Shown here piece by piece: positions 52,109 to 64,000 of a DNA stretch of 64,000 nt. Both the position numbers and the translations under genes were made by a program. Source of the stretch: Falsigemmobacter intermedius (GTDB lineage: Bacteria; Pseudomonadota; Alphaproteobacteria; Rhodobacterales; Rhodobacteraceae); assembly GCF_004054105.1 (NCBI RefSeq), contig NZ_SBLC01000009.1, forward strand, positions 1-64,000. Reading direction: 5' to 3'. The first letter of the stretch is position 1. Every line of letters begins with the position of its first letter. The notes beneath the pieces are model-generated. The model had not been told where the DNA came from and searched no databases. It was given only the letters and a program-made list of their open reading frames with translations.

Positions 52109-54211
52109 ATGGCTGAGGCATCAGGGCAATTGCCGGAAGGGCGCGGCGTCCGTGTCGGAATTGACGTCGGAGGCACATTCACCGACTTCGTGCTGCATGA
52201 TCCTGTGGGCGGGCGGCTGGTCTTTTTCAAAGAGCCCTCCACCCCGGATGAGCCGTCGCGCGCGCTGTTGCAGGGGCTGCACACGCTCCTGACCCGCGAG
52301 GGGATTGCCTTTGATCAGGTCGGCGCGCTGATGCATGGCACGACCATCGGTCTGAATGCCATCATTCAGCGTAAAGGCGCTAAAATCGGGCTGATCGTCT
52401 CCCGCGGGTTTCGCGATATTCTTGAGATCGCCCGCTGCCGGATGCCCTCCTCCTTTGATCTGCATGCTGACAAAGAGACCCCCCTGGTGCCGCGTGAGCG
52501 GGTGCTGGAGCTGAACGCGCGGCTGAACTCTGACGGCAGTCTCGCTGCCGCCCCCGAGGCCGGGGAAATCGCCGCGCTGGGCGCGCAGCTTCGGGCGATG
52601 GATCTCGATGCCGCCGCGCTGGTCACCGTGAACGGCTATCTCGATCCGGCCTTTGAAGAGGGGCTGGCCGCGCAGATTGCCGAAGTCTCGGGGCTGGAGA
52701 TTTCCGCCGCCGCCGTGATCTGGCCTGAGATCCGCGAATATGAACGCGCGCTGGTCGCCTGCCTCAATGCCTATATCCAGCCGCTGATGCATCGCTATTT
52801 TGACGGGCTGATTGCAGGTCTGTCGCAGATGGGCGTCACTGCGCCGGTGCTGGTGACGGCCTCCAACGGCGGCTCGCTTTCCGTGGCCTCTGCCCGGGCG
52901 CGGCCGGTTGAGACGGTGCTCTCTGGCCCCGCCTCGGGTGTCATGGCCGCCGTGCGTCTGGCGGAAGCGGCGCGGGCGGCGGGCGATCTGACGGGCCAGG
53001 GGATCGTGACCTTTGACATGGGCGGCACCTCCTCAGATATCGCCATTGCCGGGGGCGCGACGCCGGAACTGGCAACCCGCACCGATATTGGCGGTCTGCC
53101 GCTGGTGCTGCCGGTGGTCGATGTCTCGGCCATTGGCGCGGGCGGCGGCTCGGTGGTCTGGGTCGATCCGCATGGTCTTTTGAAGGTCGGCCCGCAGAGC
53201 GCGGGGGCGGCACCGGGTCCGGTCTGCTACGGACGCGGTGGCACGGCCCCGGCGGTGACGGACTGCTATCTGACGCTTGGCTATATTGATCCGGCAGGGT
53301 TTCTTGGCGGGCGGATGCAGCTTGATGCGGCGGCGGCTGAAGCGGCGCTGGCGCAGATCGGCGCAAAGCTTGGCTATGAGGGCAGCCCCCGCGACGTTGC
53401 CGCCCGCACGGCAGAAGGGGCGCTGGCCGTCACCACCGCAGGCATGGCCAGCGCGCTTTACAAAACTCTGGCCGAGCGCGGGCTGGACCCGCGTGGCTTT
53501 GCGCTGATGCCCTTTGGCGGGGCGGGGCCGACCCATGCCAGCCGTCTGGCCGAAGAGACCGGCATCCGCCACGTCATCGTGCCCCCCGCTGCAGGCACCT
53601 TCTGCGCCCAAGGCGCCGCCGGGGCCGATCTGCGCCGCGATTTCGTGCGCAGCTTTCGCCTTGATGTGACGCCGGCTCTGACCGCGCCCCTGAGCGCCGC
53701 CTTTGCCGCGCTCGAAGGCGAAGCCGCCCTCTGGCTCGATGCGGAAAACGGCACCGCGCGTCCGCGCCGTTTTGAGCGGGCTGCCGATATGCGCTATCAC
53801 GGCCAAGCCTATGAGCTGCGCGTGCGTCTCGACGACGATCTGAGCGCTGAGGCCGCCCGCGCCGCCTTTGAGGCTGAGCATAAGCGCATCTACGGCTTTG
53901 CAGACCCGGAAGGGCGCATTGCCATCGGAACCATCCGCCTTGCGGCCATTGGTCCTGCTGATCCGCTGCTGCCGCCGAAGCTGACGTCCGGCGCAGAGGC
54001 TGCCCCCAAAGGTCATCGTCCGCTCTGGCTCGGGGATCGCTGGCATGAGGCCGCGGTCTGGCGGCGTGCCGCCCTTGCGCCGGGGCTCAGCCTCAGCGGT
54101 CCTGCCGTGATAGAGCAGGACGATACCACCACCATTCTTCTGCCGGGCTGGACCGCCCGTGTGGATGAGGCCGGAAACCTGCATCTCGAAAGGCTCACCG
54201 ATGCAGCTTGA
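52109..54211 (+). CDS. hyuA: Hydantoinase/oxoprolinase family protein, subunit A
   Basis: 700 residues. ATP-binding N-terminus VGIDVGGTFTDFVLHD (residues 16-31), LMHGTTIGLNAIIQRKGAKI, the central TFDMGGTSSDIAIAGG and GAGGGSVVWVDPHGLLKVGP, and MPFGGAGPTHASRLAEETGI. The family hydrolyses 5-oxoproline, hydantoins or N-methylhydantoin with ATP, or carboxylates ketones. Subunit B is next, overlapping by 11 bases, so both form one complex. The specific substrate cannot be read from sequence. Confidence 0.9.
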   Translation: MAEASGQLPEGRGVRVGIDVGGTFTDFVLHDPVGGRLVFFKEPSTPDEPSRALLQGLHTLLTREGIAFDQVGALMHGTTIGLNAIIQRKGAKIGLIVSRGFRDILEIARCRMPSSFDLHADKETPLVPRERVLELNARLNSDGSLAAAPEAGEIAALGAQLRAMDLDAAALVTVNGYLDPAFEEGLAAQIAEVSGLEISAAAVIWPEIREYERALVACLNAYIQPLMHRYFDGLIAGLSQMGVTAPVLVTASNGGSLSVASARARPVETVLSGPASGVMAAVRLAEAARAAGDLTGQGIVTFDMGGTSSDIAIAGGATPELATRTDIGGLPLVLPVVDVSAIGAGGGSVVWVDPHGLLKVGPQSAGAAPGPVCYGRGGTAPAVTDCYLTLGYIDPAGFLGGRMQLDAAAAEAALAQIGAKLGYEGSPRDVAARTAEGALAVTTAGMASALYKTLAERGLDPRGFALMPFGGAGPTHASRLAEETGIRHVIVPPAAGTFCAQGAAGADLRRDFVRSFRLDVTPALTAPLSAAFAALEGEAALWLDAENGTARPRRFERAADMRYHGQAYELRVRLDDDLSAEAARAAFEAEHKRIYGFADPEGRIAIGTIRLAAIGPADPLLPPKLTSGAEAAPKGHRPLWLGDRWHEAAVWRRAALAPGLSLSGPAVIEQDDTTTILLPGWTARVDEAGNLHLERLTDAA

Positions 54212-56192
54212 TCCCGTTACCCTTGAGATCCTGAACAACAAAGTCGCGGCCATCACGGAAGAGATGTGCCTGACGCTGCAGCGCACGGGTCGCACCCTCT
54301 ACGTCAAAGAGACCGCCGATTTCGCCTGTGCGCTGGCGGGGGCCGACGGCCGCTTCTTTGCCTATCCGCGCTCGATCGGGGTGTCGGGCTTTGTGGGGCT
54401 GGAATGCGCGCCGACCATCGCGGCGGTTGAGGCGATGACGGGGCCTTTGCAGCCTGGTGATGTCATTCTGACCAATGACCCTTACCTCTCCAAAGGGCTC
54501 GCCACTCATCTGCCCGATCTGCATATGATCGAGCCCTATTTCCACGAGGGCCGGATCGTCGCCTGGGGCTGGTGCTTTGTGCATTGCTCGGACGTGGGCG
54601 GGCGTGTGCCCTCCTCCATCTCGCCCATGAACACCGAGATCTTCCAGGAAGGTCTGCGCATTCCCCCGGTGCGGCTGATGCGCGGCGGTGAGATGGTGCC
54701 GGAGGTACGCGCTTTCCTTGATGCGAACTCCCGCACGCCTGAGGCCAATATGGGCGATATCCGCGCCATGCTGGCTGCTCTCGCTGCCGGACGTCGCCGG
54801 GTGGAGCAGGTGGTGGCGCAGCATGGCGCGGATGTGGTCGTGCAGGCCTCTGTTGATCTGGTGGCGCTGGCGGGCAAAAAGGCACGCGCTGTCATCGCCT
54901 CAATGCCTGAGGGCGAGTACAGCTTCTCGGATTATCTTGACGATGATGCGGTCAGCGATCTGCCGGTGCGGCTGGCGCTGAAGATGACGCTGAAAGACGG
55001 CGGCGTCTGTCTGGATTTCACCGGATCGGACCCGCAGGTTCAGGCGGCGATGAATATCCCCTCGCACGGGCGGCCGCATTCCTGGCTGACGCTGCGCGTG
55101 CTGGCGCTGGTCTCCACGCTCGATCCTTCAGTGCCGCTGAATGCGGGGCTGCTGGATCCGGTCTCGATCATCGCGCCGGAAGGCACCATCGTGAACCCCC
55201 TGATGCCTGCGGCCACAGGTGTGCGCCATGCGGCGGCAGTGCGGGTGAATGATCTTCTGAACGGGGCCTTCGGTCTGGCGCTGCCTGAGGCGCTTCCGGC
55301 GGCCTCTTCCGGCACCATCATCCCGGTCGTGGTGACCGAGCCGGACGGGCGCGGCGGGCGCAATGTGCAGGTGGTCGAGCCGATGATCGGCGGCACCGGC
55401 GGGCGCTTTGGTCACGACGGTGTGGACGGGCGCGACAGCGGTATCTCAAACCTTGCCAATAACCCGGCTGAGACGGTTGAGGCGGAACTGGGCGTCACCT
55501 TCCTCAGCTACGCTTTGCGGCCTGACAGCGGCGGGGCCGGGCAGTGGCGCGGCGGCGCGGGCATGGCGCTGAGCTTCCGGATTGATCGCGAGGGCTCCTT
55601 CGTGCTGGCCCGCGGGATGGAGCGTCTGAAGTTCCGTCCATGGGGCCGCGAAGGCGGACGCCCCGGTGCGCCTGCCGCGCTGATCGTGAATGAGGGCCGC
55701 GCCGATGAGCGCCGCCTTGGCAAGATCGATATGCTGCCCGTGAAACGCGGCGACACCGTGACCTTCCTGACGCCTGGTGCGGGTGGCTATGGCGACCCGA
55801 TGGCGCGGGACCCGGAGGTGGTTTTGCGCGATGTCGCCGCCGGGCTGGTCAGCCCGGAGGCCGCGCTGGGCGACTACGGCGTGGTGATCCGTGAAGGCGC
55901 GGTTGACGCCGCTGCGACCGCTGCTGCCCGTGCCGCAGCCCGCCCCTCGGAGGGCCGCATCGATTTCGGACCGGAGCGGCGCCACTGGGATGCGGTGTTC
56001 CCGGCGGATCTGATGGACCGCTTCAACGCGGCGCTTCTCTCGCTTCCGGCCGGCACCCGCAGCAGCCGGCGCAGCCGCGCTCTGCGGGCAGCCCTTTCGC
56101 TGCTGCCTGAGGGCTTCCCGCAGGTGGCCGCTTCAGCCGGGCAGGCTCAGGCCGCACGCGCGGCCCTGGAAGAGGAGATGGCCCATGGCTGA
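54201..56192 (+). CDS. hyuB: Hydantoinase/oxoprolinase family protein, subunit B
   Basis: 663 residues from ATG 54201 (MQLDPVTLEILNNKVAAITE). Blocks of the B subunit: TNDPYLSKGLATHLPDLHMI, HCSDVGGRVPSSISPMNTEI, then LDFTGSDPQVQAAMNIP and PDSGGAGQWRGGAGM, GAGGYGDPMARDPEVVLRDV near the end. It forms a complex with HyuA for ring opening. Its longer C-terminus (Ala/Arg-rich) is not conserved. The stop overlaps the VOC gene start. Confidence 0.9.
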   Translation: MQLDPVTLEILNNKVAAITEEMCLTLQRTGRTLYVKETADFACALAGADGRFFAYPRSIGVSGFVGLECAPTIAAVEAMTGPLQPGDVILTNDPYLSKGLATHLPDLHMIEPYFHEGRIVAWGWCFVHCSDVGGRVPSSISPMNTEIFQEGLRIPPVRLMRGGEMVPEVRAFLDANSRTPEANMGDIRAMLAALAAGRRRVEQVVAQHGADVVVQASVDLVALAGKKARAVIASMPEGEYSFSDYLDDDAVSDLPVRLALKMTLKDGGVCLDFTGSDPQVQAAMNIPSHGRPHSWLTLRVLALVSTLDPSVPLNAGLLDPVSIIAPEGTIVNPLMPAATGVRHAAAVRVNDLLNGAFGLALPEALPAASSGTIIPVVVTEPDGRGGRNVQVVEPMIGGTGGRFGHDGVDGRDSGISNLANNPAETVEAELGVTFLSYALRPDSGGAGQWRGGAGMALSFRIDREGSFVLARGMERLKFRPWGREGGRPGAPAALIVNEGRADERRLGKIDMLPVKRGDTVTFLTPGAGGYGDPMARDPEVVLRDVAAGLVSPEAALGDYGVVIREGAVDAAATAAARAAARPSEGRIDFGPERRHWDAVFPADLMDRFNAALLSLPAGTRSSRRSRALRAALSLLPEGFPQVAASAGQAQAARAALEEEMAHG

Positions 56193-56880
56193 CACTGCGG
56201 TTTTTAACCTGCCGGTCGATCATCTCGTGGCCCTTGTGCCGGATCTGGAGGCCGCGGGCGCGGCCTTTCGGGCGGCGGGCTTCACCACGACCCCGCTCGC
56301 GCACCACAGCGCGGCCATGGGGACGGCCAATATCTGTGTGATGTTCGGAAATGGCTATCTGGAACTGATGGGCATCGTCACTGAGACCGAGGCCAATGCG
56401 GGCTGGCGCAGCCTGCTGGCCCAGGGTCCGGGGCTGCGGGGCGTGGCCTTTGAAAGCCAGGATATCGCGGCCACGCATCACGCGCTGGAACAGGCCGCGC
56501 TTGCGCCTGAGCCGGTTCGCCATTTTGCGCGAAACGTGCCGGAGGGGGAGCTGCGTTTCTCGATCACCCGCCTCTCGCGCGAGATCACGCCGGGGCTGCA
56601 ATGTCTTTACTGTCAGCACCATACCCGCGACCTCCTTTGGCTGCCGCATCTGATGCAGCATGACAATCAGGCGGTTGCGATGCTTGGTGCCTGCCTTCCG
56701 GATGCGGCCTCTCTGGCACCGCTGCAGGTGCCCGATCTGCTGGCGGCAGAGGCGCTTTTGCCGCTGACGGCAGGGCCGTCGGCACTGACACTCTCGCTCA
56801 CTGGGGGCGCGGCCCCGCCCTCAGAGGCCGCGCTCGCCGGGGTTTTTGCGATCTCGGGTCTTTCCCTTCAGTTCCGGTGA
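56185..56880 (+). CDS. VOC/Glyoxalase_3-like protein in the hyu operon
   Basis: 231 residues. FNLPVDHLVALVPDLEAAGA and ANICVMFGNGYLELMGIVTE are the first beta-alpha-beta-beta-beta unit; YCQHHTRDLLWLPHLMQHDN is the second part, rich in His. The set may bind a divalent metal. It overlaps hyuB (8 bases) and the FAD gene, so it belongs to the operon. Possible roles are epimerase, dioxygenase or lyase; unproved. Confidence 0.75.
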   Translation: MADTAVFNLPVDHLVALVPDLEAAGAAFRAAGFTTTPLAHHSAAMGTANICVMFGNGYLELMGIVTETEANAGWRSLLAQGPGLRGVAFESQDIAATHHALEQAALAPEPVRHFARNVPEGELRFSITRLSREITPGLQCLYCQHHTRDLLWLPHLMQHDNQAVAMLGACLPDAASLAPLQVPDLLAAEALLPLTAGPSALTLSLTGGAAPPSEAALAGVFAISGLSLQFR

Positions 56881-58166
56881 TGCCTATGCCCTCATGGCCC
56901 GATACCCCGCCCTCACCGCTCTGGCAGCGCCTGTCGCGTGAGAGCTTCACTGCCCCGAAACTGACCGAAGCCACCCGGGCCGATGCCGTCGTGGTCGGCG
57001 GCGGGATCACCGGACTTTCGACCGCGCTGTCGCTGCGCGAGCGCGGGCTGAGCGTCATCCTGCTGGAGGCGGTCACCATCGGTGCCGGTGCCTCTGGTCG
57101 TGCCAATGGTCAGGTCATCGGGACGCTGACCCGCATGCCGCCCGATCAGATCCGCGAAAAGATCGGCCAGCCTTTCCTTGATCTGGTGGCAGGCTCAGCC
57201 GACCGGCTCTTCGCGCTGGTGGAGCGGTTCAACATCGATTGCGATGCGCGGCGCAGCGGCTGGCTGCAACCGGCCCACAGCGCGGGCCGCGCAAAACGCG
57301 CCGCAGGGCTTGCAGCGGGCTGGGCGCGGGCCGGGGCCGACACCCAGGCGCTCAGCCGCGAGGACGTGACCGATCTGATCGGCGCACCGGGCTATCAGGG
57401 CGGCTGGCTGCACCGGGGTGGGGGGCATATCAACCCCTATGCCTTCACGCTCGGCCTTGCCCGTGGCGTCGCAGGCGAAGGCGTGCAGATCTTTGAGCAC
57501 TCTCCCGCCCTCGGCCTTCAGCGCGCGGGAGAGGACTGGCGCGTCACCACGCCTGAGGGAGAGGTCCGCGCCCGCTATGTGGTGCTGGCCACCGCCGCCC
57601 ATACCGGCGATCTCTGGCCCGGGCTGGCTCAGAGCCTGGTGCCGGTCACCTCCTATCAGACGGCAACCGCGCCGCTCGGGGCGCTGGCCGATCAGATCCT
57701 GCCGGGGGATCAGGCCTTTTCAGACACCCGTCAGGATCTGCGCTATATGCGCAAAGACCGCGAGGGGCGTCTGGTGTCAGGCGCGGCGCTGGCGGTGCAG
57801 ATAGGCGCGAAGTTCCGACTGCCGCGCGCGGTGCGCCGCCGTCTGGGGGAGCTGTTCCCCGCGCTGTCAAAGGCGCAGATGCCGGAATTCTGGGGCGGGC
57901 GCATCGGCATGACCACCGACCGGCTGCCGCATCTGCACCGCACCGATGACGGGCTTGCGGCCTTTGTCGGCTGCAACGGGCGCGGGCTCGGGCTTTGCTG
58001 CGCCATGGGGCCTCTGCTGGCCGATGCGGTCACCGGTCTGCCGGAGGAGGACCTGGCGCTGAAGCCGCAGCCGATCCGCCGGTTGCCGCTCCATTTCTTC
58101 GTCAAACGTTTTGCCCGGATGATCCTGCCCTGGCTGCGCTGGCAGGACAGCCGCGAGGTGAAATGA
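56880..58166 (+). CDS. FAD-dependent amine/amino-acid oxidoreductase (DAO family)
   Basis: 428 residues from ATG 56880 overlapping the VOC stop. Dinucleotide-binding motif VVVGGGITGLSTALSLRERG (residues 38-57), the second motif IGAGASGRANGQVIGTL, and C-terminal GCNGRGLGLCCAMGPLLAD. The layout matches DAO-type enzymes such as gamma-glutamylputrescine or sarcosine oxidases, which oxidise amines or N-methyl groups. In this operon it probably acts on an amine released after ring opening. Confidence 0.85.
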   Translation: MPMPSWPDTPPSPLWQRLSRESFTAPKLTEATRADAVVVGGGITGLSTALSLRERGLSVILLEAVTIGAGASGRANGQVIGTLTRMPPDQIREKIGQPFLDLVAGSADRLFALVERFNIDCDARRSGWLQPAHSAGRAKRAAGLAAGWARAGADTQALSREDVTDLIGAPGYQGGWLHRGGGHINPYAFTLGLARGVAGEGVQIFEHSPALGLQRAGEDWRVTTPEGEVRARYVVLATAAHTGDLWPGLAQSLVPVTSYQTATAPLGALADQILPGDQAFSDTRQDLRYMRKDREGRLVSGAALAVQIGAKFRLPRAVRRRLGELFPALSKAQMPEFWGGRIGMTTDRLPHLHRTDDGLAAFVGCNGRGLGLCCAMGPLLADAVTGLPEEDLALKPQPIRRLPLHFFVKRFARMILPWLRWQDSREVK

Positions 58167-58167
58167 C

Positions 58168-58199
58168 AAAAGCCCCCGGTGTCAGGCCGGGGGCTTTTT
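58168..58199. terminator. Bidirectional terminator between the two convergent operons
   Basis: AAAAGCCCCCGG pairs exactly with CCGGGGGCTTTT around a seven-base loop, between stops at 58166 and 58201. Confidence 0.9.
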
Positions 58200-58200
58200 G

Positions 58201-59055
58201 CTAGGGACCGGCGGGGGCCGTGGGACTGGCCTGCCAGTGATGTTTTTCGCTGAGGCTGTTGTGCCAGTCGGCAAGATCACAGGCCCGCGCGATCCAGGCC
58301 CCCGGGGTCTCGCGCACTTCTGCCAGCAGGGTCTCCAGAACCTTCAGGCGATGCGCGCGCGGGGTGATATAGTCATGCACCGTCAGCATCAGCAGGCCGC
58401 CGAAGTCCTGCAGCCCGCGCCATTCCTGCTGCCAGATCTCCAGCACCTGCGCGGGGGCGAAGGGCGGGGCCAGATCCCCGCCGCCGCCTAAGAACTTCCA
58501 ATAGACCGCGTCATCCATGGCCCATTGCACCGGAATTTCCGTCACGCCGCCGATCTGATAGGGATGATCGAAGCCCGAGAGAGAACTGTCGTAAAGCCCG
58601 AGCCGCTGCACCTCAGCCAGCATATGCGGCGTCATCTCCCAGGCCGGAGAGCGAAAGCCCCGGGGGCGCTGGCCGGTCTGACGGTGAAAGAGGTCAAGCG
58701 AGCGCTCCAGCGCCTCGGAAAACTCTGCATCGCTGATTTCGGTGACGAATTCATGAAACCAGCCGTGCAGCCCCACTTCATGCCCGCCCGCGATCAACCG
58801 GGGCAGCAGATAAGGATGCGCTTCAGCCACCGCGCCTGGCACATAGAAGCTGCCCCTGATGTCAAAACGTTCAAGCAGATCCAGCACCCGCCAGATCCCC
58901 TCGCGCAGGCCAAAGCGGCGCTGCTCCAGATGCGAGAGGTAAAGCGGCCCGCTGCGGTCGCGGTTGATCCAGGCCCAGGGGCTGTCGCTGTCGACATCCA
59001 TCGAAAAGACGAAGGCCGCGCGTTTCCCCTCGGGCCAGGGATAGGGCTGATGCAT
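58201..59055 (-). CDS. NodB-fold polysaccharide deacetylase-like hydrolase (possible cyclic amidase)
   Basis: 284 residues, no signal peptide, so cytoplasmic. NodB motifs in the variant form: FSMDVDSDS (D20, D22) in place of TFDDG, HGWFHE with H97 and H101 as metal ligands, and R135 in GFRSPAWEM. The absence of export and the DVDSD/HGWFHE pattern fit the PuuE allantoinase and cyclic imide hydrolase branch rather than cell-wall deacetylases. It is 6 bases after dppF, last in the transporter operon. Confidence 0.8.
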   Translation of the reverse strand: MHQPYPWPEGKRAAFVFSMDVDSDSPWAWINRDRSGPLYLSHLEQRRFGLREGIWRVLDLLERFDIRGSFYVPGAVAEAHPYLLPRLIAGGHEVGLHGWFHEFVTEISDAEFSEALERSLDLFHRQTGQRPRGFRSPAWEMTPHMLAEVQRLGLYDSSLSGFDHPYQIGGVTEIPVQWAMDDAVYWKFLGGGGDLAPPFAPAQVLEIWQQEWRGLQDFGGLLMLTVHDYITPRAHRLKVLETLLAEVRETPGAWIARACDLADWHNSLSEKHHWQASPTAPAGP

Positions 59056-59061
59056 CGCGGC

Positions 59062-60038
59062 TCAGCCCGGTTCGCGCAGATGGCAGGCCAGCTCCGTGCC
59101 TTTGCTGCCCTGGTGCAGCGCGGGCATCGACAGGCGGCATTCCTCAGCGGCGATCGGGCAGCGGGTGGAGAACACGCAGCCGGGCGGCGGATTGGCGGGG
59201 CTGGGCAGATCGCCGCTCAGAAGGATGCGGCTGCGCCGCGCGCGGGCACCCGCTTCGGGCAGGGGCACGGCTGAGAGAAGCGCCTGGGTATAGGGATGGC
59301 GCGGATCGGCAAAAAGCGCCTGTGTGGGGCCGCTTTCAACGATTTTTCCCAAGTACATCACCGCCACGCGGTCCGCGAAATGGCGAACGACGGACAGGTC
59401 ATGGCTGATGAAAAGATAGGCCAGCCCCAGCCGCTTTTGCAGATCAAGAAGCAGGTTCAGGATCTGCGAACGGATCGATACATCAAGCGCCGAGACCGGC
59501 TCATCGAGCACCAGAAGCTTCGGCTCAGCCGCAAGGGCGCGCCCGATGACCAGACGCTGGCGCTGCCCGCCGGAAAATTCATGCGGCCGGCGTGTTGCGT
59601 GATCGGGATGCAGGCCCACCAGGCTCAGCAGTTCCGCCACCCGCTCGCGGATCGCCGCTGCACTCAGATACCCTTGGGCTTCGAGCGGCTCTGCCAGCGA
59701 CTGGCCCACCGTCATCTTCGGATCAAGCGCCGAGACGGGGTCCTGCCAGACGACCTGCATCTTTGCCGCCAGCGCCCGGCGCTCTGCCGTGGTGGAGGCT
59801 GAGAGGGCCTCGCCCTCAAACCTCACGCTGCCTTCCGTGGGGCGGGTCAGGCCGAGGATCGCATTGCCGAGGGTGGATTTGCCGCAGCCCGATTCCCCTA
59901 CCACCGCCAGGCTTTCGCCGGGGTTCAGCGAGAGGGAGACACCACTTACGGCCTTTACTTCGCCGACCTGACCGCCCCAAAGGCCGCCGCGGATCGGGTA
60001 GCGGACGTGAAGGTCACGGACCTCAAGAAGCGGCGCAG

Positions 60039-60042
<4 letters not shown>
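59062..60042 (-). CDS. Peptide/nickel-type ABC transporter ATP-binding protein (DppF-like)
   Basis: 326 residues. Walker A VVGESGCGKSTLGNAILG, Q-loop MQVVWQDPVSALDP, signature EFSGGQRQRLVIGRAL, Walker B LLVLDEPVSALDVSIR, and the oligopeptide C-terminal tail with CVFSTRCPIAAEECR. Energises import together with the DppD-like subunit. It overlaps the upstream gene by ATGA. Confidence 0.93.
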
Positions 60043-61010
<968 letters not shown>

Positions 61011-61019
61011 AAGCGCTCC

Positions 61020-61865
61020 TTACCGATGACCGGTCTCGATGCGGTCGCGGAAGTGATCGCCGATCACATTCACCGAAAGCACCAGAAGAAAAAGGCAAAG
61101 TCCCGGGATCGTGGCGATCCACCAGGCCTGAGCCACATAGTTTTTACCCACCGCCAGCATGGAGCCCCAGCTTGCGGTCGGGGGCTGCACGCCCAGACCC
61201 AGGAAGGAGAGCGAGGCCTCAAAGAGCACCATCAGCCCGAATTCCAGCGTGGCCACCACGATCAGCGCACCCGCGATATTGGGCAGGATGTGGCGCAGGA
61301 TGATGCGGGGCTGCGAGACGCCGCTGAACTGCGCCAGCCGCACGAAGGCCGCGCTGGAGAGGCTCAGGGTCTGGCCGTAGGCCACGCGGGCATAGCGCGG
61401 CCAGCGGGTGAGGGCGAGGACCACCACCACATTGGTCAGGCTTGGCCCGATGATCGCCACCGAGATGATCGCCAGCAGCAGGGCCGGGACGGAGAGCACG
61501 ATATCGGCGGCCCGCATGATCAGCGTCTCCACCCAGCCGCGGCGGGTGCTGGCAATGACGCCCAGAAGCGTGCCGACAACGCCTGACAGGATCACGGAAC
61601 TGAAGGCCACCAGCAGCGAAACCCGGGCCCCGTAGATCACCCGCGACAGGATATCGCGGCCGATCTCATCGGTGCCCAGCAGATAGAAATTGCCGCGCGA
61701 TTCAAAGCCCGGCGCTTTCAGCCGCGCCATCAGGTTTTGCGAGGCCGGATCATGGGGCGCGATCAGCGGCGCAAAGACCGCGACCAGCACCAGCAGCACC
61801 ATGATCAGCAAAAAGGGCAGCAGCATCTTATGCGTGCGGGCGCTGGCAAGAAGTGAAGATGCCAT
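61020..61865 (-). CDS. ABC transporter permease (DppC-like)
   Basis: 281 residues, about five to six membrane helices. N-terminal LPFLLIMVLLVLVAVFAPLI and the OppC leader PHDPASQNLMARLKAPG, LLGTDEIGRDILSRVIYGAR, and the EAA-like loop in the middle. Forms the channel with the DppB-like subunit in the inner membrane. One base from dppB. Confidence 0.93.
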   Translation of the reverse strand: MASSLLASARTHKMLLPFLLIMVLLVLVAVFAPLIAPHDPASQNLMARLKAPGFESRGNFYLLGTDEIGRDILSRVIYGARVSLLVAFSSVILSGVVGTLLGVIASTRRGWVETLIMRAADIVLSVPALLLAIISVAIIGPSLTNVVVVLALTRWPRYARVAYGQTLSLSSAAFVRLAQFSGVSQPRIILRHILPNIAGALIVVATLEFGLMVLFEASLSFLGLGVQPPTASWGSMLAVGKNYVAQAWWIATIPGLCLFLLVLSVNVIGDHFRDRIETGHR

Positions 61866-61866
61866 C

Positions 61867-62793
61867 TCAGCGGCCCCCCGTCACACGAATGCGCGGATCG
61901 ATCAGCCCGTAAAGCAGATCCGCAATCAGGTTGAGCAGAATGGCCGTGACCGCGCCCAGCATCACGATCCCCTGCACCAGAGTGAAATCCCGCGCATTGA
62001 TCGCCTGAACGGTCAGCTGGCCCAGACCCGGCCAGGCAAAGACGCTTTCGACCACCACAGCCCCCGCCAGCAGGTTGGCGATCTCAAGCGCCGAGATGGT
62101 CACCAGCGGAACCGAGGCATTGCGGCTGATGTGGCGCAGCAGAATGGTGAACTGCGACAGCCCCTTCGAGCGGCCCGTGCGGACATAGCCCTTGCCCAGT
62201 TCCTCCAGCACCGCGGTGCGGGTGACGCGGGCAAAGGTCGCCATGGACAGGATCCCAAGGCTGATCGCGGGCAGGATCACCGAATCAAAGCTCCGCGCTC
62301 CTGAGGGGGGCAGCCATTTCAGCCAGACCGCGAAAATCATGATCAGAAGGATCGCAGACCAGAAGGTCGGCAGCGACTGTCCGGCCAGCGCAAGCCCGGT
62401 TGCGGCCCGGGCCTCAGCCCTGCCGCGCCGCATCGCCATAATGACGCCCAGCGGAATGCCGATGCCGCAGGCCACCACAAGTGCCCCGGCGGCCAGCCCG
62501 AGGGTATAGGGCAGGCGGCTTTTGATCAGATCCCAGACCGGCACGTTCTGCACGATAGACTGGCCCAGATCAAAGCGCAGCAGATCGCCTAAGTAGGCCA
62601 GATATTGCACCATCAGCGGGCGGTCAAATCCAAGCGCCACCCGCATCCGCTCAATATCCGCCGCCGAGGCATCCTGCGGCACCAGCAGCAGAACCGGATC
62701 GCCCGAGAGGCGCTGCAGAAAGAAGATCAGCGTCATGACGCCGAGAATTGCGATCAGCGACTGCAGCAGGCGCCGGGCAAGAAAAAGGATCAT
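61867..62793 (-). CDS. ABC transporter permease (DppB-like)
   Basis: 308 residues, six membrane helices: ILFLARRLLQSLIAILGVMT, LGLAAGALVVACGIGIPLGV, and the EAA loop (VLEELGKGYVRTGRSKGLSQ). Typical OppB/DppB. Its ATG overlaps the stop of the GntR gene, so regulator and transporter are coupled. Confidence 0.93.
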   Translation of the reverse strand: MILFLARRLLQSLIAILGVMTLIFFLQRLSGDPVLLLVPQDASAADIERMRVALGFDRPLMVQYLAYLGDLLRFDLGQSIVQNVPVWDLIKSRLPYTLGLAAGALVVACGIGIPLGVIMAMRRGRAEARAATGLALAGQSLPTFWSAILLIMIFAVWLKWLPPSGARSFDSVILPAISLGILSMATFARVTRTAVLEELGKGYVRTGRSKGLSQFTILLRHISRNASVPLVTISALEIANLLAGAVVVESVFAWPGLGQLTVQAINARDFTLVQGIVMLGAVTAILLNLIADLLYGLIDPRIRVTGGR

Positions 62794-63545
62794 GAGGTCA
62801 CCTGAGCGGCGCGGCGGCGACGGGCAGGGGCGGGACGGCCGCTCTGCACCCGGGCACCGGATTCGAGAAAGCGCTCGAGAAGCCAGGTCTCCAGCGCGCG
62901 GTTGGCAGCTTGAAGATGCTCCAGCGCCTCATTGCGGCGGCCCTCCGTCAGGGCCTGAACAAGGCGGGCGCGGGGGGCCGGCGTATAGCGGACCGGGCCG
63001 GTGTCTTCAAAAAAGTTCACCAGCCGGACTGAGCGGTCCCAGAGATCATTCAGCCAGCCCTGCACCATGGGCATCGACAGCGCCTCTGCCACGCTTTCGA
63101 TGATCTCGCGCTCTGCGGCGCGGATGGCGGCAGAGCCGGTCGGATCATCATCAAAGCGCTGCATCAGTGCGGCGTGGCGACCCGCCAGGGCGGCCAGCTT
63201 TTCGCGGGCCAGCTCATCGAGCGTGGCGGTGGTCAGGATCGGCTCCAGATGGCGGCGGGCGGCGCAGACTTCGCGGATCTCGGGGGCCGAGACCGGGGTG
63301 ACGCGCCAGCCGCTGCGGGGGCTGGAAGACACCAGGCCGCTTTCCTGCAGCGCCCTGAGGGCCGCGCGCAACGCGCCGCGCCCGATGTCAAAATCGCGCG
63401 CCAGAACCACCTCTGAGAGCCGCGCCCCGGGGGGCAGCACGCAGGAAACGATCGCGTCGCGCAGGATGCGCGTCGCCTGCAGGCTGTCGCCTGTCGCGGG
63501 AGAGGCCGGAGCCTCTGGCGTGGTGTGATCTGGTATCTCAGTCAT
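62790..63545 (-). CDS. GntR family (FCD-type) transcriptional regulator
   Basis: 251 residues from ATG 63545. N-terminal winged helix (LQATRILRDAIVSCVLPPGA, ARLSEVVLARDFDIGRGALR, ALRALQESGLVSSSPRSGWR), then an FCD effector domain, all-helical (EVCAARRHLEPILTTATLDE, AALMQRFDDDPTGSAAIRAA). FCD domains bind small carboxylates with a metal. It lies at the head of the transporter operon and next to the divergent binding-protein gene, so it most likely controls both. Confidence 0.88.
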   Translation of the reverse strand: MTEIPDHTTPEAPASPATGDSLQATRILRDAIVSCVLPPGARLSEVVLARDFDIGRGALRAALRALQESGLVSSSPRSGWRVTPVSAPEIREVCAARRHLEPILTTATLDELAREKLAALAGRHAALMQRFDDDPTGSAAIRAAEREIIESVAEALSMPMVQGWLNDLWDRSVRLVNFFEDTGPVRYTPAPRARLVQALTEGRRNEALEHLQAANRALETWLLERFLESGARVQSGRPAPARRRRAAQVTS

Positions 63546-63837
63546 GTTCGCTTGATGCCATCGCGCCGAAGCTTTGAAAAGCCTGCTCTTTGCAGAGATT
63601 TCAAACCCGATCCGCCTGAATCGCATGAACGGAAAGGATAAATCGCTCCATTGGAAAGAAATTTCTCCGGTGCTCACCGGGAAAAGAACAGCCTCCCTGA
63701 GATGCGCTGAAAAAGGGAATGCCGCGAGCATTGCAGGAATCGAGCCGTTGTGACAGCTTTTGGCCATGGTAGTCGCGCAAACTGCGATCTCAGAATAATC
63801 GGCGGACAGGCTCCGCCCCCGGCAATGGATTGAACTG
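63546..63837. promoter_or_regulatory. Divergent control region between the GntR gene and binding-protein gene
   Basis: 292 bases. It holds an AGAAATTTCT palindrome (near 63657-63666) within the longer GGAAAGAAATTTCTCC, a plausible operator. Promoter boxes are not clear on either strand. Confidence 0.4.
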
Positions 63838-64000
63838 ATGGCTCTGAAATCCTGGGTCACCGCGGCCCTTCTGGCGGCCACTTCGCTTTCGGGTTTTGCT
63901 GCGCCGCTGGCGGCGAAAGAGACCCTGGTCGTGGATTTTGTGGCTGAACCCGCCTCGCTCGATCCCCATGGCCAATGGGACGTGGCAAGCTACACGGTCT
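63838..64000 (+). CDS. ABC transporter substrate-binding protein, start only
   Basis: 54 codons before the right edge. Signal peptide MALKSWVTAALLAATSLSGF...AAPLAA, then KETLVVDFVAEPASLDPHGQ, the standard start of SBP_bac_5 (peptide/nickel) binding proteins. It is divergent from the dppBCDF-like genes and would be their periplasmic receptor. Confidence 0.85.
   Translation, partial: MALKSWVTAALLAATSLSGFAAPLAAKETLVVDFVAEPASLDPHGQWDVASYTV

What the first reader, a model, noticed from the sequence alone, without database searches (positions are those of the whole stretch)
58201..59055. Cytoplasmic NodB-fold enzyme that may be a cyclic amidase, not a sugar deacetylase
No signal peptide, variant motifs DVDSD and HGWFHE, and a place in a transporter/hydantoinase neighbourhood fit the PuuE allantoinase or cyclic imide hydrolase branch.
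Basis: partly seen in the sequence, partly recalled or inferred. Interest (0 to 1): 0.5.

Follow-up and report, generated by a model that had tools for sequence, protein, structure and literature searches.

The report
Cytoplasmic NodB-fold enzyme, probable imide ring-opener
A bacterial enzyme that looks like a sugar deacetylase belongs instead to a small-molecule branch of that fold that probably opens nitrogen rings, and in this lineage it has lost the partner genes its relatives keep beside it, while the copy in a sister species is broken.

Summary
In detail: 58201-59055 (-) encodes a 284-aa NodB-fold protein with no visible signal peptide, DVDSD at residues 20-24 and HGWFHE at 97-102. It is not a PuuE allantoinase: it scores 36.9 bits against a 424.6 cut-off, keeps the metal site that PuuE lost, and the genome has a real PuuE elsewhere. 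It is not placed with classical polysaccharide deacetylases. It belongs to a metal-binding cytoplasmic branch with HpPgdA and PDB 3rxz; papers link HpPgdA to cyclic imide hydrolases. In its own clade an SDR oxidoreductase gene lies beside it in 20 of 24 loci examined, and a gamma-glutamyltransferase-type amidase in 17 of 24, mostly inside a peptide-type ABC importer operon. This order resembles fungal HxnW-HxnM-HxnN. My reading: a zinc-type hydrolase of a cyclic imide or related cyclic amide; substrate unknown. The sister species' copy is broken, and the window copy carries three clustered odd changes just after the catalytic histidine. So it may be an orphan, re-tuned or starting to decay.

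The parts
58201..59055 (-). NodB-fold (CE4-like) cytoplasmic hydrolase, 284 aa
   Evidence: ORF and Pfam PF01522; relatives and trees
58984..58998 (-). Motif I D20-V-D22-S-D: predicted catalytic Asp20 and metal ligand Asp22
   Evidence: aligned to HpPgdA Asp12/Asp14; 114 of 114 relatives
58750..58767 (-). Motif II H97-G-W-F-H101-E: two predicted metal ligands
   Evidence: aligned to HpPgdA His86/His90; PuuE has W at 101
58510..58539 (-). Branch signature E173-x-P-x-x-W178-x-x-D181-D182
   Evidence: strict in 105 of 114 relatives, in none of 21 classical TFDD controls
58360..58377 (-). Motif V: H227 (predicted catalytic His) followed by window-only changes W229Y, S231T, G232P
58168..58199 (.). 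Shared terminator-like hairpin between the two convergent gene sets
   Evidence: read directly: GCCCCCGG / CCGGGGGC with A and T runs
59062..60042 (-). DppF-type ABC ATPase
60039..61010 (-). DppD-type ABC ATPase
   Evidence: relatives in clade operons
61020..61865 (-). DppC-type permease
   Evidence: relatives in clade operons
61867..62793 (-). DppB-type permease
62790..63881 (-). GntR-family regulator (true start probably further downstream than the ORF start)
   Evidence: a divergent substrate-binding protein gene begins at the window's end
52109..54211 (+). HyuA (hydantoinase/oxoprolinase family A)
54201..56192 (+). HyuB (hydantoinase/oxoprolinase family B)
56185..56880 (+). VOC / Glyoxalase_3 protein
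56877..58166 (+). FAD-dependent oxidoreductase (DAO family; nearest NCBIfam model L-pipecolate oxidase, far below its cut-off)

Best explanation
The protein is a cytoplasmic, metal-dependent hydrolase of the HpPgdA/3rxz branch of the NodB fold that opens the ring of a small cyclic imide or related cyclic amide brought in by the linked peptide-type importer. Predicted mechanism: Asp22, His97 and His101 hold a divalent metal (probably zinc) and its water; Asp20 activates the water, which attacks a ring carbonyl; His227 protonates the leaving ring nitrogen; the E-x-P-x-x-W-x-x-DD segment helps shape a small pocket. In the ancestral island an SDR would make the imide and a GGT-type amidase would cut the resulting half-amide; both are lost here, so in this lineage the enzyme works without them, on a shifted substrate or with other amidases, or is on its way out. 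Shown: fold family, conserved residues, tree position, gene order, absence of the partners, broken sister copy. Inferred: metal, reaction, substrate class, order of steps, that the absence is a loss.
For: Active-site residues match HpPgdA one for one and are identical in 114 of 114 relatives. The careful tree separates the branch from classical deacetylases with 100/100, and PuuE, a ring-opener, falls on the same side. PMC9304392 and PMC8478523 (passages): fungal HxnM, over 60% identical to the P. putida cyclic imide hydrolase, has HpPgdA as closest structural homologue, and acts between an SDR (HxnW) and an amidase (HxnN). Bacterial neighbours repeat this: SDR on the same strand within 2 kb in 62 of 121 loci, only on the other strand in none, background 1 SDR per 67 kb; in the window clade SDR 20 of 24, GGT 17 of 24. 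Other subgroups carry a different amide hydrolase: isoaspartyl peptidase, HyuAB, amidase. Of five HpPgdA-orthologue loci, three have a dihydropyrimidinase with a nitrilase or asparaginase, and all five a CobW-type GTPase.
Against: No substrate or activity was tested. HpPgdA, the closest studied branch member, was inactive on allantoin and on acetylated sugars, polyamines and dipeptides, and the same paper cites deacetylase activity on crude peptidoglycan (passages). SDR and hydrolase genes are common; my hydrolase reference set was drawn from these same neighbourhoods, and still 56 of 126 loci show neither partner. The window locus itself lacks SDR and GGT. AU tests leave open whether the window clade branches first on the non-classical side (p 0.18) or joins HpPgdA (p 0.42). 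In the larger quick tree the non-classical group had only 81% SH-aLRT.
Confidence: 0.55

Rival explanations
1. It is a small-molecule N-deacylase: it removes acetyl or another acyl group from an imported amine, amino acid or peptide in the cytoplasm, using the same metal chemistry as classical NodB enzymes.
For: Same catalytic residues as deacetylases; importers of the peptide and polyamine type beside the family (PMC3084791 passages); a GGT or isoaspartyl peptidase next door could be peptide-processing.
Against: HpPgdA was inactive on N-acetyl polyamines and N-acetyl dipeptides (PMC3084791 passages); a dihydropyrimidinase beside three of five HpPgdA-orthologue loci and the HxnM precedent point to ring opening.
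Confidence: 0.22
2. In this lineage the gene is vestigial: it worked with the SDR and GGT, lost its job when they were lost, and is drifting.
For: The F. faecalis copy has an internal deletion and a frameshift that remove the signature segment and the catalytic His (G675 has a contig of the same length and is evidently the same assembly); NodB dN/dS 0.27 for residues 1-173 against 0.034-0.137 for ten other genes of the cluster (HyuB and VOC not computed), while in a species pair with the full operon it is 0.140, like GGT 0.132; window changes W229Y, S231T, G232P at otherwise clade-fixed positions.
Against: The window ORF is full length, keeps every predicted catalytic residue and departs from positions fixed in the rest of its clade only at those three; polarised changes fall 8 on F. 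faecalis, 3 on the window branch, 25 unresolved. The F. faecalis break rests on one draft assembly.
Confidence: 0.25
3. It is a PuuE-type allantoinase.
For: PuuE shares the fold and falls on the same side of the tree; weak TIGR03212 match.
Against: 36.9 bits against 424.6; the genome's PuuE has N/E/W where this protein has D20/D22/H101; a PuuE of 501 bits is elsewhere in the genome; grouping the clade with PuuE costs 13.8 log units, AU p 0.042.
Confidence: 0.02
4. It is a peptidoglycan or chitin deacetylase.
For: Same Pfam family; usual annotation of its relatives is polysaccharide deacetylase; HpPgdA is cited as active on crude peptidoglycan (PMC3084791 passages).
Against: No visible signal peptide; no TFDD motif; attachment to three classical subgroups rejected; neighbours of relatives are mostly importers and catabolic enzymes.
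Confidence: 0.03

Closest known systems
HpPgdA (HP0310, PDB 3qbu) of Helicobacter pylori
   Same: Non-secreted NodB fold; same metal and catalytic residues; HGxxHE and E-x-P-x-x-W-x-x-DD segments.
   Different: About 26% identity over the printed stretches; of five HpPgdA-orthologue loci none showed the SDR-GGT pair, three have a dihydropyrimidinase with a nitrilase or asparaginase, five a CobW-type GTPase.
Cyclic imide hydrolases: P. putida YZ-26 imidase and Aspergillus HxnM
   Same: Related to HpPgdA according to PMC9304392 (passages); the order SDR, ring-opener, amidase resembles HxnW, HxnM, HxnN.
   Different: No sequence was available for a direct test; HxnN is called an amidase, whereas the bacterial clade uses a GGT-type Ntn hydrolase.
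PDB 3rxz (putative polysaccharide deacetylase; Mycobacterium by recall)
   Same: Closest solved structure by sequence, 36% identity over 253 residues, same motifs.
   Different: Function not stated in the search result; different subgroup.
PuuE allantoinase (PDB 3cl6)
   Same: Fold; ring-opening chemistry; same side of the tree.
   Different: Metal ligands and signature residues not kept, own model not met.

Membership tests
NodB fold / Pfam PF01522 | Match above the curated cut-off | tested here: met
   60.9 bits against 23.1
Classical CE4 polysaccharide deacetylase | Secretion signal or membrane anchor | tested here: not met
   Motif I is 20 residues from the start, W7-P8 conserved. Read by eye; no signal-peptide program was available
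Classical CE4 polysaccharide deacetylase | TFDD-type motif I and placement in the classical clade | tested here: not met
   D-V-D motif; 100/100 split and AU tests; support 81 in the larger quick tree
PuuE allantoinase (TIGR03212) | Score above equivalog cut-off | tested here: not met
   36.9 against 424.6
PuuE allantoinase (TIGR03212) | Metal-less active site | tested here: not met
   D20, D22, H97, H101 all kept
HpPgdA / cyclic imide hydrolase branch | Asp-His-His metal site plus catalytic Asp and His | tested here: met
   Alignment to HpPgdA D14, H86, H90, D12, H247
HpPgdA / cyclic imide hydrolase branch | Sequence kinship with the characterised P. putida imidase | not tested
HpPgdA / cyclic imide hydrolase branch | One clade with HpPgdA excluding others | tested here: inconclusive
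   AU p 0.42 for holding them together; not in the best tree
Cyclic imide hydrolase (EC 3.5.2.16) | Hydrolysis of cyclic imides | not testable with these tools
   No assay
SDR-NodB-GGT-Dpp operon of the clade | SDR and GGT beside the NodB gene | tested here: not met
   Both absent from the window locus; in the whole genome the best matches are a 42% GGT on another contig with its own transporter genes and SDRs of at most 37% identity

The most novel reading that the evidence does not exclude
Alphaproteobacteria carry an undescribed type of catabolic island in which a constant cytoplasmic NodB-fold ring-opener is paired with an SDR and with any one of several unrelated amide hydrolases (GGT, isoaspartyl peptidase, HyuAB, amidase, nitrilase, asparaginase), each suited to the half-amide released. 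The GGT and isoaspartyl peptidase versions would recycle glutarimide- and aspartimide-type products of peptides as gamma-glutamyl and beta-aspartyl compounds.
Probability: 0.2. Interest if true: 0.6.

Novelty: new variant of a known kind. Interest (0 to 1): 0.42.

Why it matters
A set of proteins annotated 'polysaccharide deacetylase' in soil and marine bacteria probably does not touch polysaccharides. The shared neighbours turn a vague annotation into a short testable list of cyclic imides and amides, would give HpPgdA (substrate specificity called unknown in PMC9304392) a chemical hypothesis, and the window lineage may show the same enzyme in the act of losing its partners.

Tried and rejected
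PuuE allantoinase: rejected. Classical deacetylase: rejected. HyuAB as the obligatory partner of the NodB: weakened, because HyuAB with its own transporter stands without an annotated NodB in the stretches seen in Shinella (there with VOC and FAD genes), Neorhizobium (no FAD gene annotated beside it; its NodB operon is elsewhere on the plasmid) and Paroceanicella (FAD gene on the other strand) (PLSDB gene tables are incomplete). For a link: islands with both in two Agrobacterium plasmids; Roseomonas has a different NodB-SDR pair (34% to the window) beside HyuAB; HyuA-HyuB-SDR-NodB runs (L159); and among 289 other family genomes 2 of the 4 with a close HyuA also have the NodB clade, which 10 have, hypergeometric p 0.006 (the two searches drew 295 and 290 genomes, so the sets are nearly but not exactly the same). 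AlphaFold on the single sequence gave pLDDT 45 and was not used. A pattern scan of genome contigs gave one relative, F. faecalis. Paper searches whose listings (titles and abstract starts) show no paper on this gene order: (12 of 145 listed); the library holds open-licence papers only. Homarine catabolism was a guess and led nowhere. The first LacI comparison used a wrong frame; corrected values are. My pattern for the SDR glycine motif matched none of the 12 SDRs shown, though YxxxK is present in all 12; L058 reads TGGCGIIGG there. Not followed: over 420 of the 442 plasmid records and 43 of 143 places.

Full report
Observation. The ORF at 58201-59055 (-) is real, 284 aa, with a Pfam Polysacc_deac_1 match of 60.9 bits. 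DVDSD is residues 20-24, HGWFHE residues 97-102. No signal peptide is visible. The genome (4.05 Mb, 151 contigs) has three NodB-fold matches: this one, a true PuuE of 501 bits on contig 98, and a 308-aa PuuE-like protein on contig 2.

Branch. The nearest solved structures by sequence include 3rxz (E 1.8e-44), HpPgdA 3qbu (1.6e-17) and PuuE 3cl6 (5.5e-12). In an alignment with 114 relatives (of 117 proteins extracted, the window's own copy and two short ones, one of them F. faecalis, are not counted), D20, D22, H97, H101, R135, E173, P175, D182 and H227 are identical in all 114. D20, D22, H97, H101 and H227 align with HpPgdA Asp12, Asp14, His86, His90 and His247, which hold the metal and its water (PMC3084791, passages). 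The genome's own PuuE has N, E and W at positions 20, 22 and 101. The segment E-x-P-x-x-W-x-x-DD is found strictly in 105 of 114 relatives and in none of 21 TFDD controls. A careful tree of 39 chosen rows splits nine classical TFDD proteins from the other 30 with 100/100, and PuuE falls with the others. A larger quick tree of 98 rows gave that non-classical group 81% SH-aLRT. AU tests reject attaching the clade to each of three classical subgroups (p 3.9e-7, 0.010, 3.1e-5) and weakly reject PuuE (0.042). They do not settle whether the window clade branches first on the non-classical side (0.18) or joins HpPgdA (0.42).

Neighbours of relatives. E <= 1e-30 relatives occur in 61 of 295 family genomes and 48 of 385 class genomes, 143 distinct places; I fetched 100 of them, plus 17 of 442 plasmid records. 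Of 121 loci scored, 62 have an SDR on the same strand within 2 kb and none only on the opposite strand; beyond 3 kb there is one SDR per 67 kb. The loci are related to each other and one plasmid appears twice (L047 and L060), so this is no formal probability. None of 21 TFDD control loci showed an SDR, but their flanks are only about 1.5 kb. In the window clade I count 24 distinct loci (L215, L229): SDR 20, GGT 17, neither 3 (window, F. faecalis, Burkholderia L065). Usual order: GntR, SBP, DppB, DppC, SDR, NodB, GGT, DppD, DppF, sometimes RidA. The 16 GGT rows checked (15 distinct) keep the T-[TS]-H motif, and the 12 SDRs shown keep YxxxK.

Other subgroups carry another amide hydrolase: SDR-NodB-isoaspartyl peptidase (L049, L050, L053, L055-L057, L157, L217, L218; L051 without a detected SDR), HyuA-HyuB-SDR-NodB-Dpp (L052, L075, L078, L101, L159), amidase (L154). 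With an enlarged reference set, itself taken from such neighbourhoods, 44 of 126 loci have a C-N hydrolase on the same strand within 3 kb (GGT 17, isoaspartyl peptidase 10, creatininase family 9, HyuB 5, amidase 5, others fewer), and 56 of 126 have neither hydrolase nor SDR. Of five loci with an HpPgdA orthologue (L178 is 73% identical to 3qbu over the printed stretches), L220, L222 and L225 have a dihydropyrimidinase (L220: 575 bits, above cut-off) and a nitrilase-type amidase or an asparaginase; all five have a CobW-type GTPase.

Precedent. In Aspergillus, SDR HxnW makes 3-hydroxypiperidine-2,6-dione, HxnM opens that imide, and amidase HxnN frees the nitrogen; HxnM is 64% identical to the P. 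putida cyclic imide hydrolase and structurally closest to HpPgdA (PMC9304392, PMC8478523; passages). The bacterial gene order suggests the same logic. That step is inference.

The window island. In Agrobacterium leguminum and A. tumefaciens CFBP5877 a single stretch of about 25 kb carries relatives of all the window cluster's genes (window against A. leguminum: HyuA 65%, HyuB 75%, FAD protein 63%, VOC 44%, DppB 72%, SBP 67%, AHS 70%, M81 66%, NodB 54%; LacI 40%) plus SDR, GGT, a second SBP and a second ABC transporter. In the window genome SBP, amidohydrolase, M81 and LacI genes follow at and just outside the window's end; SDR, GGT, second SBP and second transporter are not in the stretch seen. 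The window protein nests among members of SDR-GGT operons (97/90), so loss is the simpler reading.

State of the gene. The F. faecalis copy matches residues 1-173 and then has an internal deletion and a frameshift, losing the signature segment and catalytic His. NodB dN/dS between window and F. faecalis (residues 1-173) is 0.27; ten other genes of the cluster range 0.034-0.137. In the pair G234/G676 with the full operon NodB is 0.140, GGT 0.132, SDR 0.067, and GntR, whose ORF starts may be off, 0.237. Polarised changes fall 8 on F. faecalis, 3 on the window, 25 unresolved. The window copy departs from residues fixed in the rest of its clade only at W229Y, S231T and G232P, right after His227. 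Position 232 is G in 113 of 114 relatives. One other clade member (L046) has five such departures, so the number is not unusual; the clustering is.

Verdict.

Noticed in passing
L004:10001-10753 (Falsigemmobacter faecalis): The sister-species NodB gene is broken by an internal deletion and a frameshift, while the twelve other genes of the cluster are present as long ORFs 77-96% identical to the window's.
   Followed up: yes
own genome contig 2, about 122008-122655 (L006, L207): A 308-aa PuuE-like protein without the metal ligands (101 bits, below the allantoinase cut-off) that groups with PuuE on a long branch in the quick tree; function unknown.
   Followed up: partly
L220, L222, L225: Close orthologues of Helicobacter HpPgdA in Rhodobacteraceae lie with a dihydropyrimidinase, a nitrilase or asparaginase, an ABC importer and a CobW-type GTPase; this hints at HpPgdA's unknown substrate.
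   Followed up: partly
L073, L084, L091, L116, L126, L129, L130: A further subgroup has two SDR genes in tandem before the NodB gene, an ABC ATPase, and an agmatinase-family match within about 5 kb in all seven (on the other strand in two).
   Followed up: no
L228 and L229 (Agrobacterium plasmids): Catabolic island of about 25 kb combining HyuAB, VOC, FAD oxidoreductase, M81, amidohydrolase, two transporters and the SDR, NodB and GGT genes; its substrate is unknown.
   Followed up: partly
own genome contig 95 (L206:8044-9648): A GGT about 42% identical to the operon GGT sits with peptide-type transporter genes and no NodB.
   Followed up: no
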